From Candidatus Bathyarchaeota archaeon (lineage in GTDB: Archaea > Thermoproteota > Bathyarchaeia > Bathyarchaeales > Bathycorpusculaceae), in contig JAOZHT010000004.1 in assembly GCA_026014735.1 (NCBI GenBank), positions 281,321-345,320 of the forward strand: DNA of 64,000 bases, read 5' to 3'. The stretch's first letter is position 1, and the number at the start of each line of letters is the position of its first letter. The notes below the pieces were generated by a model. The model had not been told where the DNA came from and ran no database searches. It saw only the letters and a list, made by a program, of their open reading frames with translations. This document shows, piece by piece, positions 43,035 to 50,997 of the stretch. The position numbers and the translations under genes were made by a program.

Positions 43035-43442
43035 CTAGACGACATTTCGCCTGTAATTGGGAGTAGGCTGCCATGTTTGCTGATTCACTAAGCCGCCTAT
43101 GAAGCCTCCGATGACCGCGAGGACTATGGCAACGATTCCGGCTAAGACACTTAATGCCAAGCCCGCGATGCCGCCCAGTATGGCGCCGAGGATTCCGTAT
43201 TGGGCACCGCCCTCTAAGACAAAGCCGAAGAAAGTAAGAATTGTCATGACAATAGCGCTAAAGACCCCGGAGATAAACCCCGAGATGGACCCACCCATGG
43301 CTCCCCGGGCTATGAGTCCGGCAACTAGGCCGCCGAGAAGAGCGCCGAAGAGATAACCCAGCCCCGGGTAGATGATGCCCAGAACCACGGTTAACAGAAA
43401 ACCAACCAATGCGCCAAGCCCAATACCAGCCATAAGGTTCAC
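43035..43442 (-). CDS. Glycine-rich membrane protein (DUF5518-like)
   Basis: A 135-residue protein with four hydrophobic, Gly/Ala-rich membrane segments (about 2-22, 28-46, 52-77 and 85-120). It resembles the small DUF5518-type archaeal and bacterial membrane proteins. A role is not known. It lies 42 bases behind the TIGR00266 gene, with a T-rich tract in between. Confidence 0.65.
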   Translation of the reverse strand: MNLMAGIGLGALVGFLLTVVLGIIYPGLGYLFGALLGGLVAGLIARGAMGGSISGFISGVFSAIVMTILTFFGFVLEGGAQYGILGAILGGIAGLALSVLAGIVAIVLAVIGGFIGGLVNQQTWQPTPNYRRNVV

Positions 43443-43453
43443 TTATGTTGGCT

Positions 43454-43480
43454 TAAGAAAAAAAGAAGATAAAAAGCTTG
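43454..43480 (-). terminator. T-rich terminator
   Basis: A T-dominated minus-strand tract between the TIGR00266 gene and the membrane-protein gene; it may end the first transcript. Confidence 0.4.
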
Positions 43481-43484
43481 TTAC

Positions 43485-44192
43485 TCAACGCGCCCTCTCG
43501 CTTCGAACTTTGGGGGCTAAAAGCGTCCAGAGCCACTCCGTGAATTCCTGCAGGTTCTTGGTTTGGATATGCACTTCACCGGGCCCCGTTATTTGGGTAA
43601 CTAGGCCTTCGCCGCTTAGCAGGGTTTCTTTGAGGCCGCCTAGCCGCGTGACCTTGTAGCTGCAGGTTTCGCTAAAACCGACGAGGTGAAAGTTATCTAC
43701 GATGAGGGTTTGCCCGGCTGATAGCATGTGAGTGTCGATGGCGCCAAAAGTGTTGATGAACATTTGTCCGCTGCCTGTGGCTTTAATCATGAATAAGCCT
43801 TGACCGAAAAGCCCCTTAGTGAAGCCTTCCCATTTCACGTCAAGATCGATGCCTGAGGTGGAGGCGATGTAGGCGGATTTCTGGATGACGTAGCCGCTGC
43901 CGGGGGCAACGTCGAGTTGCTTGATGTCGCCGACTGGCGCCGCCACGAAGGCAGCTTCGCCGGAACCGTTCTGTGCGGTGAAGTCGTTAACCCAGAAGGA
44001 TTGGCCTCCGATGAGGCTGAGTCCTAGGCTGCCCCAGATGCTTTTTTCGCGTTTGCGGGTATGTACTTCTATGTTGGGGGTCATGTAGGTTAATGCGCCG
44101 GATTCGGCGGTGATGGCTTCGCCCTGCTCTAAGCTTGCCACGAGCATAGCGTAAGAGGGCTTGTATTTGATTTCGAACCTCAATTCTATCAA
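43485..44192 (-). CDS. TIGR00266/AIM24 family protein
   Basis: A 235-residue protein with three repeated beta-rich segments and the family motifs PSYAMLVASLEQGEAITAES, GALTYMT, GQSFWVNDF and GSGYVIQKSAYIASTSGIDL. TIGR00266/AIM24 proteins form a TRAP-like beta fold; in mitochondria AIM24 affects cristae, in prokaryotes the role is unknown. Length is normal. Confidence 0.85.
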   Translation of the reverse strand: MIELRFEIKYKPSYAMLVASLEQGEAITAESGALTYMTPNIEVHTRKREKSIWGSLGLSLIGGQSFWVNDFTAQNGSGEAAFVAAPVGDIKQLDVAPGSGYVIQKSAYIASTSGIDLDVKWEGFTKGLFGQGLFMIKATGSGQMFINTFGAIDTHMLSAGQTLIVDNFHLVGFSETCSYKVTRLGGLKETLLSGEGLVTQITGPGEVHIQTKNLQEFTEWLWTLLAPKVRSERAR

Positions 44193-47533: not shown

Positions 47534-47558
47534 GAAATTCAAGGTTTTACTGAATTTC
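47534..47558. other. Perfect 8-bp inverted repeat in an intergenic region
   Basis: GAAATTCA, 9 bases, then TGAATTTC. It lies between aconitase and the accessory segment. It could be an operator or a weak hairpin. Confidence 0.3.
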
Positions 47559-47686
47559 TCGTTATGAGCAAGAATTCAAAGGTGACTCCAACGTTAGCGT
47601 TAACTGTTGAACCGACACAGCGCACTGGCAGCTTGGGCAGCAATTAGACTACTACAAACCCTATTGCAGTAAACCCCATTTCCTAT

Positions 47687-47971
47687 TCATGTTTCTGTAT
47701 TTTGTGGTTTAATGTTAGCCATAAAACCGTTAGCAAAGCCGTCAAACCGCAAAGTCTCCATCATCAACAGCCCTACGGCACTGCATGCACTGCCCCAGTC
47801 CCCTCTAATTGTGTGGTCTATTTCGTTTAAAGTTGTGATTTTCTTTTCATCCAACGCCTGACAAAGATAAGTTATGTAGCCTATGGCACCTTCCAACCGT
47901 GCCTTCTGCAACAGCATATCGAGTTCACAACGGTTTAGGAGCACTTCGGAGTCAGCTATACTTTCACCCAT
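47687..47971 (-). CDS. Small hypothetical protein
   Basis: A 94-residue, mainly helical protein (MGESIADSEVLLNRCELDML, YITYLCQALDEKK, LLMMETLRFDGFANGFM). I start at ATG 47971, with GGTG 6 bases ahead. It is divergent from an AbrB-like gene across AGTACT repeats. I do not recognise it; a toxin, antitoxin or regulatory partner are possibilities by position only. Confidence 0.5.
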   Translation of the reverse strand: MGESIADSEVLLNRCELDMLLQKARLEGAIGYITYLCQALDEKKITTLNEIDHTIRGDWGSACSAVGLLMMETLRFDGFANGFMANIKPQNTET

Positions 47972-47988
47972 TTTTTTCACCTAATTTA

Positions 47989-48046
47989 AGTACTCTCACA
48001 GTACTCAATAAGGACGCGATTCTTATAAAAGTATCTTTAAAGTACT
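47989..48046. promoter_or_regulatory. Three AGTACT sites in a divergent promoter
   Basis: The palindrome AGTACT occurs at 47989-47994, 48000-48005 and 48041-48046; the last two are in the phrase AGTACTCAATAA. They lie between divergent small genes where an AbrB-type protein could bind and autoregulate. TCTTATAAAA (about 48021-48030) is a possible TATA box for the plus-strand gene. Confidence 0.45.
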
Positions 48047-48060
48047 CAATAAAATAGGTT

Positions 48061-48228
48061 ATGGAAATGCCAATCAAGCTAGAAGTAAGCGTAATGCAAG
48101 TGGGAAATTCCCTCAGAATAACAATCCCAAAAGAAGTAGCCGCACATTTAGAGCTAAAAAAAGGCGATATAGTGCAGATATGGGCAGACGATAACCACGT
48201 ATTTTTAGAGAAAAAAAATGCACCTTAG
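48061..48228 (+). CDS. AbrB/SpoVT-like DNA-binding protein
   Basis: A 55-residue protein, too short for ordinary gene calling: KLEVSVMQVGNSLRITIPKE, then LELKKGDIVQIWADDNHVFL. This is the swapped-hairpin AbrB fold, found in archaeal regulators and in type II antitoxins. AAAATAGG lies ahead of the ATG. The gene is beside AGTACT repeats. Confidence 0.8.
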   Translation: MEMPIKLEVSVMQVGNSLRITIPKEVAAHLELKKGDIVQIWADDNHVFLEKKNAP

Positions 48229-48456
48229 ACAAATATTACGTATCAGGCATAAGAGTTGACTTTTAGGGGGGTTGGCGTATTGGACGTAACCCGCCTACTG
48301 GGCTTAGTGATCTAATAGACTTCTCTGTTTCCATCATAATTAACCCTAAAATCAGTAATTGCTGGGTCTATATGTGAGCTTTTTATCTGGCTCGATTCAC
48401 CGAGCAGGTAAGCGGGATCGTAGCATCAAACTGTAAAAAACAATAAGGGGATTAAG

Positions 48457-49679
48457 TCAAAAATCATATTTTTTAATCCATTCTTCTTTTAATTTACCGC
48501 CATCGATAAAGTGAATATATCGCCTATTTGCGTATGTTCCAGTGATGATTGTTGTTTTTGCTTGAGGGCTTATGCCTTTTGACGTCACGACATACAGTAC
48601 ATGCACACACTTGGATTCGTTTGTCAGTGGGTCATTAAATGGTGTAGTAAAGGCTTCTTGTATTTGGTTTAATATGGGCGTTATACGAGTTCCTTCTGAA
48701 CGAGTTGCATTGCCGTGAATTTCTCTAGCCTTTATTTGAAATGCAAAATTAATTCCAACGCCAAATCGATCATTCAAAAAGCACACAACATCTCTGCCAT
48801 GTTCATCCGAACCATGGATATCAGAAACATTCTTGAACCCCTTCAACCGAAGTAAGGGGATGATTACATTTTTTCTCAGAAGATTCTCATCATTTTTTGA
48901 ACCTTCAAATATTTCCTCAGCACTAACTGCGCTCTCTATCACGCCGATTGTTAATATTATAGAAAGTGAAGTTACAAATTCGTCAGTAGTGTGAGATATC
49001 TCAGTAGTCTGTGGAGTAACGTATATAGGAAGAACCGCATTGTGGACAAGGTAACCTTTACCAATAACCAGAGAAGATACGCCTGAAAATTCCCCTCTTC
49101 TGTATAGCGACTTATTGATTAACGATAAATTTGTAAAATATAGTATGCGCGTACAAAAGATGAGGTCGGTTAACGGCGCGCCATACTTTCGAGATAGCTT
49201 AGTACCAAAAGGGGTTAAGTTGCACCAACTGATTCCCATAGTTTCGTTTGCTTTTATTCCTGTGCTCTCTAAAAGCAAATTTAATCCAGTCCATCCAATG
49301 TCTGTTTCATTCTCCCCTGAGGAGTAGCACCAAAACGGCATCCCACATATTGAAACTACAATCCAGCCATAGACAGAAATATTACGTGCAATTTGACCCA
49401 AATAATCATGATAGTTTCCCATGACTCTGGCATAGGAATAGTTTCTCCATGTCCGTTTACCAATACTACCTTTTCTGGATGTGTTCGTACAAGCTGATCA
49501 AGTTCGTCCATTGATTGGATATGGACTACTTCATAACCTTCTTTGTTTCTACAAAACTCGATAATTCGATTAAGCACATTTGTCGGGTTATGTATGAAAC
49601 GATGGCGTACTCCATCAATGGCTAACACGTAAATTTGGGTAACCATAGCATGACAATAGCTTTTTTTGAAATTTAACAT
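48457..49679 (-). pseudogene. Frameshifted His-Gly/Cys domain plus PD-(D/E)XK nuclease protein
   Basis: Two frames on the minus strand, 49356-49679 and 48457-49422, encode one protein of about 400 residues if one base is added at the GGG at 49418-49420. The joined text reads VVLVNGHGETIPMPESW then GNYHDYLGQIARNI and IVVSICGMPFW. The C-terminal domain (about residues 185-320 of the second frame) has GSDEHGRDVV and FAFQIKAR, an Mrr-type D...QxK nuclease motif. The N-terminal His-Gly and Cys pair recalls caspase-like or ThuA-like folds. It may be broken, misassembled, or use a shifted frame. Confidence 0.6.
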
Positions 49680-50229
49680 TTGCTTAATTAAAAGTGGTTA
49701 GATAACTACAGGGCGGCGTTATCTTTTTACGGAACAGTTTAAAGTCTCCAAAATCGCCTCATACTCATAGCGATTGGCTATAAGGGTTTTTAGCTCCGAA
49801 CTACCATAAGTCTAATGGGAATTGGGTGAGGCGTGATTTTTCTCTTGTGTTTTTTGAAGCGCAAAATCGCTTATAGGGCGGCTTGACTTGGGGCCGTTGG
49901 GCGGTTGCCTGATTGTATGGGCTATGATAGTGCCCGACTTGTATGCGCTGTTCACTGCTAAGGTGCCGTTCTTGTGAATTCATAAGAAGACTGCGCATTG
50001 CTTCCACATCCACACCACAGCGGTTTCAACATGGAGCCATGCAGGATGTGTGGAGAAAAACCAATATCCCACACCCAAATAGACAAAGAAAACAAAACGC
50101 CAAAAGCAATCTGGTCCTCAAGCAGACTTGTGGCACCCCATAAACCGCCACACCCACACAAAGAACAAAAAGCACTAAAAACAAAAAAATGAAATAGGTA
50201 AGCCGCCATATCAATGACAGAGGAACACC
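49680..50229. other. Intergenic region, no convincing gene
   Basis: About 550 bases. Short frames occur on both strands (for example 49801-50013, minus) but have no ribosome site and no recognisable family. The sequence between 50090 and 50180 is unusually rich in A and C. I see no promoter or repeat I can defend. Confidence 0.5.
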
Positions 50230-50997
50230 ATGTCGTTTAAGGGTAAAATGCAGGAAGCCGCCAAAAGCAAAAACAGCCCCCTAATCTTAGCATTGGATTT
50301 CCCCTTCCAAGCCACCGAGAACCGAAACAACATCCTCATCAAAGCCCAAAAAATCCTCCAAGCCGTCCATCCCTACATCGCCGCCGTCAAAATCAATCAT
50401 CACCTCACCTTGCCGCTGGGCACCTTTGATGGCGTGCAATTTTTGGTGGAGCAGATTCGGGGCGCGGGGATGCTGGCGATTATGGATGCTAAGGTAAACG
50501 ACATAGGCGCCACTAACCAAACCATTGCGGAATACTATTTTGCCGCGGGGTTTGATGCCATCATCGCGAATCCGTTTGTAGGCTGGGAGGAGGGGTTAAA
50601 GCCGCTTTTTGATGTCTCCAAGCGGCTGAACCGCGGCGTGATATTGCTGACTTACATGAGCCATAAGGGCGCGGTGGAGGGTTACGGTCAAACCATAGTG
50701 GATCCCTACACTGGCTTGCAGACGCCGCAGTACATCTCGTTTGCTAAGAAGGCGCTTCAGTGGGGTGCAGACGGCGTGGTTGTGGGTGCAACGGTTCCGG
50801 AAAAAATCGCTGAGGTTAAGGCTATTTTGGGCGATAAAGTGGCGGTTTACTCCCCGGGCGTAGGGGCACAGGGAGGAGCAGCGGCTTCGGCGATGAGGGC
50901 AGGCGCCAGCTACCTTATAGTCGGCAGAGAAATCATGATGGCTTCTGACCCAGCGGAGGCTGCTCAGCGGATTCTATGCGCTATTAAGGGTTTGTAA
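50230..50997 (+). CDS. pyrF: Orotidine 5'-phosphate decarboxylase
   Basis: A 255-residue TIM barrel, last step of UMP synthesis. The active-site lysine and aspartates are in AIMDAKVNDIGATN, with LILALDFPF and AAVKINHHL at the substrate end, and SPGVGAQGGAA and LIVGREIM at the phosphate end. Length and motifs are normal for the archaeal enzyme. It stands alone, separated from the accessory segment by 230 bases. Confidence 0.95.
   Translation: MSFKGKMQEAAKSKNSPLILALDFPFQATENRNNILIKAQKILQAVHPYIAAVKINHHLTLPLGTFDGVQFLVEQIRGAGMLAIMDAKVNDIGATNQTIAEYYFAAGFDAIIANPFVGWEEGLKPLFDVSKRLNRGVILLTYMSHKGAVEGYGQTIVDPYTGLQTPQYISFAKKALQWGADGVVVGATVPEKIAEVKAILGDKVAVYSPGVGAQGGAAASAMRAGASYLIVGREIMMASDPAEAAQRILCAIKGL

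What the first reader, a model, noticed from the sequence alone, without database searches (positions are those of the whole stretch)
48457..49679. Frameshifted fusion: His-Gly/Cys domain with Mrr-like nuclease domain
Two overlapping frames make sense as one protein if the GGG at 49418-49420 had one more base. The N-terminal domain has VVLVNGHGE and IVVSICGMP, a spacing that recalls clan CD (caspase-like) peptidases, though ThuA-like folds are an alternative. The C-terminal domain has a D...QxK nuclease motif. Peptidase-nuclease fusions are known in some defence systems. The surrounding segment is A+T-rich and accessory.
Basis: partly seen in the sequence, partly recalled or inferred. Interest (0 to 1): 0.62.

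Follow-up and report, generated by a model that had tools for sequence, protein, structure and literature searches.

The report
Broken archaeal two-domain nuclease gene
An A+T-rich insert in an archaeal (Bathyarchaeota) genome carries one gene, broken by a one-base frameshift, that encodes an Mrr-type restriction-nuclease domain joined to an undescribed archaeal domain; it is not a caspase-like peptidase, and it looks like a sporadic, probably defensive nuclease that is now damaged or mis-sequenced.

Summary
ORF A (49679-49356) and ORF B (49422-48457) are two pieces of one protein. A family profile is covered 2-75 by A and 75-210 by B, without overlap or gap, while other archaea read across the break in one frame. 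A same-genus relative has the same domain order.

The C-terminal domain is Mrr_cat-like: HHalign 96% over the full domain, with D...QxK aligned, and a homologue above Pfam's cut-off. The N-terminal domain is not caspase-like: the His is kept in 16 of 49 relatives and the Cys is private to this copy. It belongs to an archaeal family that no Pfam model recognises, mostly secreted or membrane proteins. A low-confidence model has GATase1/ThuA-like topology, unsupported by profile comparison.

The gene lies in a ~2.65-kb insert (40% G+C against 51%) between aconitase and pyrF, which are 118-358 bp apart in 20 same-genus genomes. Only 5 of 257 genomes of the class carry the nuclease domain; one of those copies is also frameshifted. 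I found no defence island and no canonical slippery site near the break.

Best reading: a sporadic two-domain nuclease, plausibly defensive, broken by mutation or sequencing error (undecidable without reads). New variant of a known kind; modest interest.

The parts
49356..49679 (-). ORF A: N-terminal piece (likely real start at Met12, 49646); carries VVLVNGHGE
   Evidence: profile 2-75
48457..49422 (-). ORF B: rest of N-terminal domain plus Mrr-like domain
   Evidence: (profile 75-210)
49417..49424 (-). point where the reading frame changes (one base short relative to in-frame relatives); no canonical slippery heptamer nearby
49021..49634 (-). uncharacterised archaeal domain (N-H/F-G-E-x-x-P-x-P ... 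W ... G-Y-P-F), possibly GATase1/ThuA-like Rossmannoid; split by the frameshift
48475..48870 (-). Mrr_cat-like PD-(D/E)XK nuclease domain; D codon 48792-48790, QIK codons 48738-48730
47534..50180 (.). A+T-rich insertion between divergent aconitase (47448-45532, -) and pyrF (50230-50997, +)

Best explanation
The finding is one accessory gene, inserted between aconitase and pyrF, for a roughly 395-residue two-domain protein: an uncharacterised archaeal Rossmann-like domain (possibly GATase1/ThuA-like) followed by an Mrr-type PD-(D/E)XK endonuclease domain. In the sequence as given it is broken by a single-base frameshift inside the first domain. Shown: the two domains, their order, the frameshift, the insertion, the sporadic distribution. 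Inferred: in intact relatives the first domain acts as a regulatory or ligand-binding module that gates DNA cleavage by the Mrr domain, most likely against foreign DNA, as stand-alone Mrr-type enzymes do. The copy here would give at most an N-terminally truncated product from ORF B's internal ATG, so it is probably a pseudogene unless the missing base is a sequencing error.
For: Collinear, gapless coverage of one domain profile by ORFs A and B. Continuous reading across the break in L007/L036 and L037. In G015 the domain runs from profile 2 to 183 at the end of contig C22 and from 183 to 211, in frame with an Mrr domain, at the start of C36; the two contig ends share an inverted 23-mer, so the architecture very likely exists independently. 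Mrr membership: Pfam Mrr_cat E=0.00068 for the isolated domain, above the gathering score in the homologue L074 (25.7 vs 21 bits), HHalign 96%, E=4e-9, with D and QxK aligned. Insertion: 20 empty sites in the genus. Sporadic: 5 of 257 class genomes. Defence by analogy: a homologous domain is fused to NACHT in a Desulfosarcina ovata plasmid protein, and Mrr-like REase domains are reported as effectors of prokaryotic conflict systems (PMC7159879).
Against: No PADLOC model hits any of these proteins (only LmuA at E=0.042). The gene and its homologues sit as single genes among metabolic genes, with no defence island recognised. The related G015 copy lacks the Lys of QxK (QIS), so activity is not conserved in every member. 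The fold of the window's own protein was not obtained: the model of ORF B has pLDDT 31. The gating role of the first domain is pure inference.
Confidence: 0.6

Rival explanations
1. Sequencing or assembly error: the gene is intact in the organism and the frameshift is an artefact, so the protein is functional.
For: One missing base at a short G run; both domains remain open on either side, with motifs kept and no further stop. Another member of the first family is also split in a different genome (L013), and so is a nuclease homologue (G016:C15).
Against: About ten neighbouring genes match two close relatives (G029, G031) in single frames; one short multi-frame match was flagged and not followed up. 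The local error rate therefore looks low.
Confidence: 0.4
2. Caspase-like (clan CD) peptidase fused to a nuclease.
For: His and Cys occur in the order and rough spacing expected, after hydrophobic strands.
Against: His in 16 of 49 relatives (F in 23, C in 7); Cys only in the window copy. No HHalign similarity to archaeal Peptidase_C14. No caspase among the 50 best fold matches. No Pfam C14 hit.
Confidence: 0.03
3. Programmed -1 frameshifting joins ORF A and ORF B, regulating nuclease output.
For: The change needed is -1; a nuclease homologue in G016 also needs a -1 change upstream of its Mrr domain.
Against: No canonical X XXY YYZ heptamer in frame near the break; the only one in ORF A (AAATTTC) is at its start, where frame B is closed. 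No homopolymer for slippage at the break. The two breaks lie in unrelated N-terminal regions. Relatives read straight through.
Confidence: 0.04
4. A transcriptional or metabolic regulator rather than a defence protein: the first domain senses a small molecule and the Mrr domain acts on host DNA or has lost activity.
For: Location beside metabolic genes, no defence genes nearby; QxK altered in G015.
Against: Sporadic distribution and an insertion absent from relatives do not fit a housekeeping role; D and QxK are kept in the window copy.
Confidence: 0.2

Closest known systems
Mrr_cat restriction endonuclease domain (Pfam PF04471)
   Same: Full-length profile alignment with the D and QxK positions and the C-terminal strand-helix part aligned; a homologue passes Pfam's cut-off.
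   Different: Carries an insertion of about 30 residues between QxK and the C-terminal strands, and an H-x-x-x-E-x-G-x-D start to the active-site loop; a divergent sub-family, itself below the cut-off in the window copy (17.1 bits full length, 20.2 isolated, vs 21).
NACHT protein WP_155326374.1, Desulfosarcina ovata plasmid Do28_1
   Same: N-terminal domain 31% identical to the window's nuclease domain.
   Different: The partner is a NACHT NTPase instead of the archaeal domain.
ThuA / class-I glutamine-amidotransferase-like fold (4jqs, 4pxy; also 3soz and GATases)
   Same: Among the best Foldseek matches of the model of the G186 homologue; alternating beta-alpha order.
   Different: Low-confidence model (mean pLDDT 48), TM-scores 0.27-0.38; no HHalign or Pfam similarity to ThuA.
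Archaeal 430-470-aa membrane/secreted proteins with the same first domain (own paralogue G000:C1:669211)
   Same: N-x-x-G-E-x-x-P-x-P and W...G-Y-P-F motifs.
   Different: N-terminal hydrophobic segment, no nuclease, His replaced by Phe or Cys.

Membership tests
Mrr_cat (PF04471) PD-(D/E)XK nuclease | Sequence-profile similarity over the domain | tested here: met
   HHalign 96%, E 4e-9; homologue L074 above gathering score; the window copy itself is just below it
Mrr_cat (PF04471) PD-(D/E)XK nuclease | Catalytic D...(Q/E)xK | tested here: met
   D at 48792-48790 and QIK at 48738-48730, aligned with Mrr positions; K missing in G015
Mrr_cat (PF04471) PD-(D/E)XK nuclease | Fold | tested here: inconclusive
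   Model of ORF B has pLDDT 31
Clan CD (caspase-like) peptidase | Conserved His-Cys dyad | tested here: not met
   His 16/49, Cys only in the window copy
Clan CD (caspase-like) peptidase | Profile similarity to Peptidase_C14 | tested here: not met
   HHalign probability 0.05%
ThuA (PF06283) | Profile similarity | tested here: not met
   HHalign 0.08%; no Pfam hit
ThuA / GATase1-like fold | Overall fold | tested here: inconclusive
   ThuA-like entries rank 1 and 2, but the model is low-confidence
Known anti-phage defence system | Match to a catalogued system or defence-island context | tested here: not met
   PADLOC without convincing hits; no defence genes recognised around six related loci, by reading ORFs only
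Known anti-phage defence system | Protective activity | not testable with these tools
   needs experiment

The most novel reading that the evidence does not exclude
A new archaeal sensor domain, widespread on cell-surface proteins, has been recruited into the cytoplasm to gate Mrr-type nucleases. The nuclease genes are so costly that copies are repeatedly inactivated: a frameshift here, a frameshift in G016, a changed catalytic Lys in G015.
Probability: 0.15. Interest if true: 0.5.

Novelty: new variant of a known kind. Interest (0 to 1): 0.27.

Why it matters
It links an undescribed, widespread archaeal domain to a restriction-type nuclease, which gives a first functional hint for that domain, and it places a sporadic nuclease insertion in a poorly studied archaeal group. 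The peptidase-nuclease reading, which would have been more exciting, does not hold.

Tried and rejected
Caspase reading: rejected on conservation and profile comparison. Two separate genes: rejected, the pieces share one domain profile without overlap. Programmed frameshift: no canonical slippery site at the break. Mobile element with terminal repeats: only weak chance-level repeats at the insert, no other copy in the genome. Viral origin: no relatives in viral contigs, none of the nuclease domain in phage records, no PHROG for ORF A or ORF B. Folding ORF B alone gave nothing. PDB sequence searches gave no convincing relative. Literature on ThuA-Mrr fusions or Mrr nucleases in Bathyarchaeia: none found in the held library.

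Full report
What is there. The two minus-strand frames are real. ORF A (49679-49356) ends in a short out-of-frame tail; ORF B (49422-48457) starts at an ATG exactly where the frame changes. A profile built from the joined first domain and its two best relatives, then iterated over the fetched loci, is covered 2-75 by ORF A and 75-210 by ORF B. Relatives read across the same place in one frame: a same-genus genome G015 (L007/L036, Candidatus Bathyarchaeota isolate palsa_986) and G186 (L008/L037, isolate bin257), with ...NSHGEALPLP..WLRFIRRIGENVRDAGWIWASVTGYPFFYY... and ...NLHGEIMPVP..WKDFYVDLGNVVKNYGWILVNLTGYPFYY.... So the window copy carries a single-base frameshift relative to its family.

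The first domain. It belongs to a family found in 53 of 398 sampled genomes of the phylum and in 30 of 257 of the class, and no Pfam model recognises it. Most members are 300-470-residue proteins with a hydrophobic N-terminal segment; the window genome has one (C1:669211, 460 aa). In 50 aligned instances the positions N75, G78, P82, P84, G113 and G132 are invariant or nearly so. His77 is F in 23, H in 16, C in 7; Cys112 is found only in the window copy. That rules out a conserved His-Cys catalytic dyad. AlphaFold2 on the intact G186 homologue gave a low-confidence model (mean pLDDT 48; blocks of the domain mostly 45-80) with alternating strands and helices; Foldseek's three best PDB matches are two entries of a ThuA-like protein (4jqs, 4pxy) and 3soz, followed lower down by glutamine amidotransferases. 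Profile comparison with archaeal ThuA and Peptidase_C14 members gave nothing for either. I therefore call it a probable Rossmann-like domain, perhaps GATase1/ThuA-like, not a member of ThuA.

The second domain. Pfam Mrr_cat matches weakly in the window protein (17.1 bits full length, 20.2 isolated, cut-off 21) and above cut-off in the homologue G247 (25.7). HHalign of seven members against 25 Mrr_cat domains from the class gives 96% probability, E 4e-9, across the domain, aligning HGRD and QIK with the Mrr active site and the terminal I..IDG..L segment. A homologous domain is fused to NACHT in a Desulfosarcina ovata plasmid protein. In the class only 5 of 257 genomes carry the domain.

The architecture elsewhere. 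In G015 the first domain runs off the end of contig C22 at profile position 183; contig C36 starts with profile 183-211 followed in frame by the Mrr domain. The contig ends share an inverted 23-mer. I take this as the same fused gene cut by the assembly. In G186 the first domain follows a helical region instead. Other Mrr-domain members have different N-terminal parts. G016:C15 is itself broken by one frameshift relative to the intact G247 protein, and G015 has QIS in place of QxK.

The location. In 20 same-genus genomes aconitase and pyrF are 118-358 bp apart; here 2781 bp. Homology to relatives resumes at about 47533 and 50181. The insert has 40.3% G+C against 51.3% elsewhere. It has no clear terminal repeats, no second copy in the genome and no tRNA nearby. 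It also holds a 97-aa ORF (47687-47980) with 71-80% identical copies in G026.

Frameshift: artefact or decay? About ten neighbouring genes match two close relatives in single frames, so the local indel error rate looks low; one short multi-frame match at 43080-43630 was not resolved. Reads are needed. No canonical slippery heptamer lies at the break; the single one in ORF A is at its start, where frame B is closed.

Mechanism. Shown: domain content, order, break, insertion, sporadic spread. Inferred: intact relatives are single-gene nucleases whose first domain regulates an Mrr-type endonuclease, probably against foreign DNA. Support is by analogy (Mrr family; NACHT-fused homologue; Mrr-like REases reported as effectors of conflict systems, PMC7159879). 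Against: no defence island seen, no PADLOC match. I put the defensive role at about 0.45 and the architecture at about 0.85.

Noticed in passing
G000:C1:669211-669465 and L009-L035, L039-L067: A widespread archaeal domain without a Pfam model (N-x-[HFC]-G-E-x-x-P-x-P ... W ... G-Y-P-F), mostly on proteins with an N-terminal hydrophobic segment; some proteins carry it twice (L048, L050).
   Followed up: partly
window 47687-47980 (-): 97-aa ORF in the same insert, with 80% and 71% identical copies in one same-genus genome (G026); no family match.
   Followed up: partly
L196 7773-8665 (G016:C15): Mrr-like gene also broken by one frameshift, upstream of its nuclease domain, relative to the intact G247 homologue.
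   Followed up: yes
L076 379-2874 (Desulfosarcina ovata plasmid Do28_1): 831-aa protein with the related Mrr-like domain followed by a NACHT NTPase; no PADLOC match.
   Followed up: partly
L013 (G069:C10): A membrane-type member of the first-domain family is also split between two frames.
   Followed up: no
window 43080-43630: One protein of G031 matches the window in two frames here; overlapping genes or a small frameshift, not resolved.
   Followed up: no
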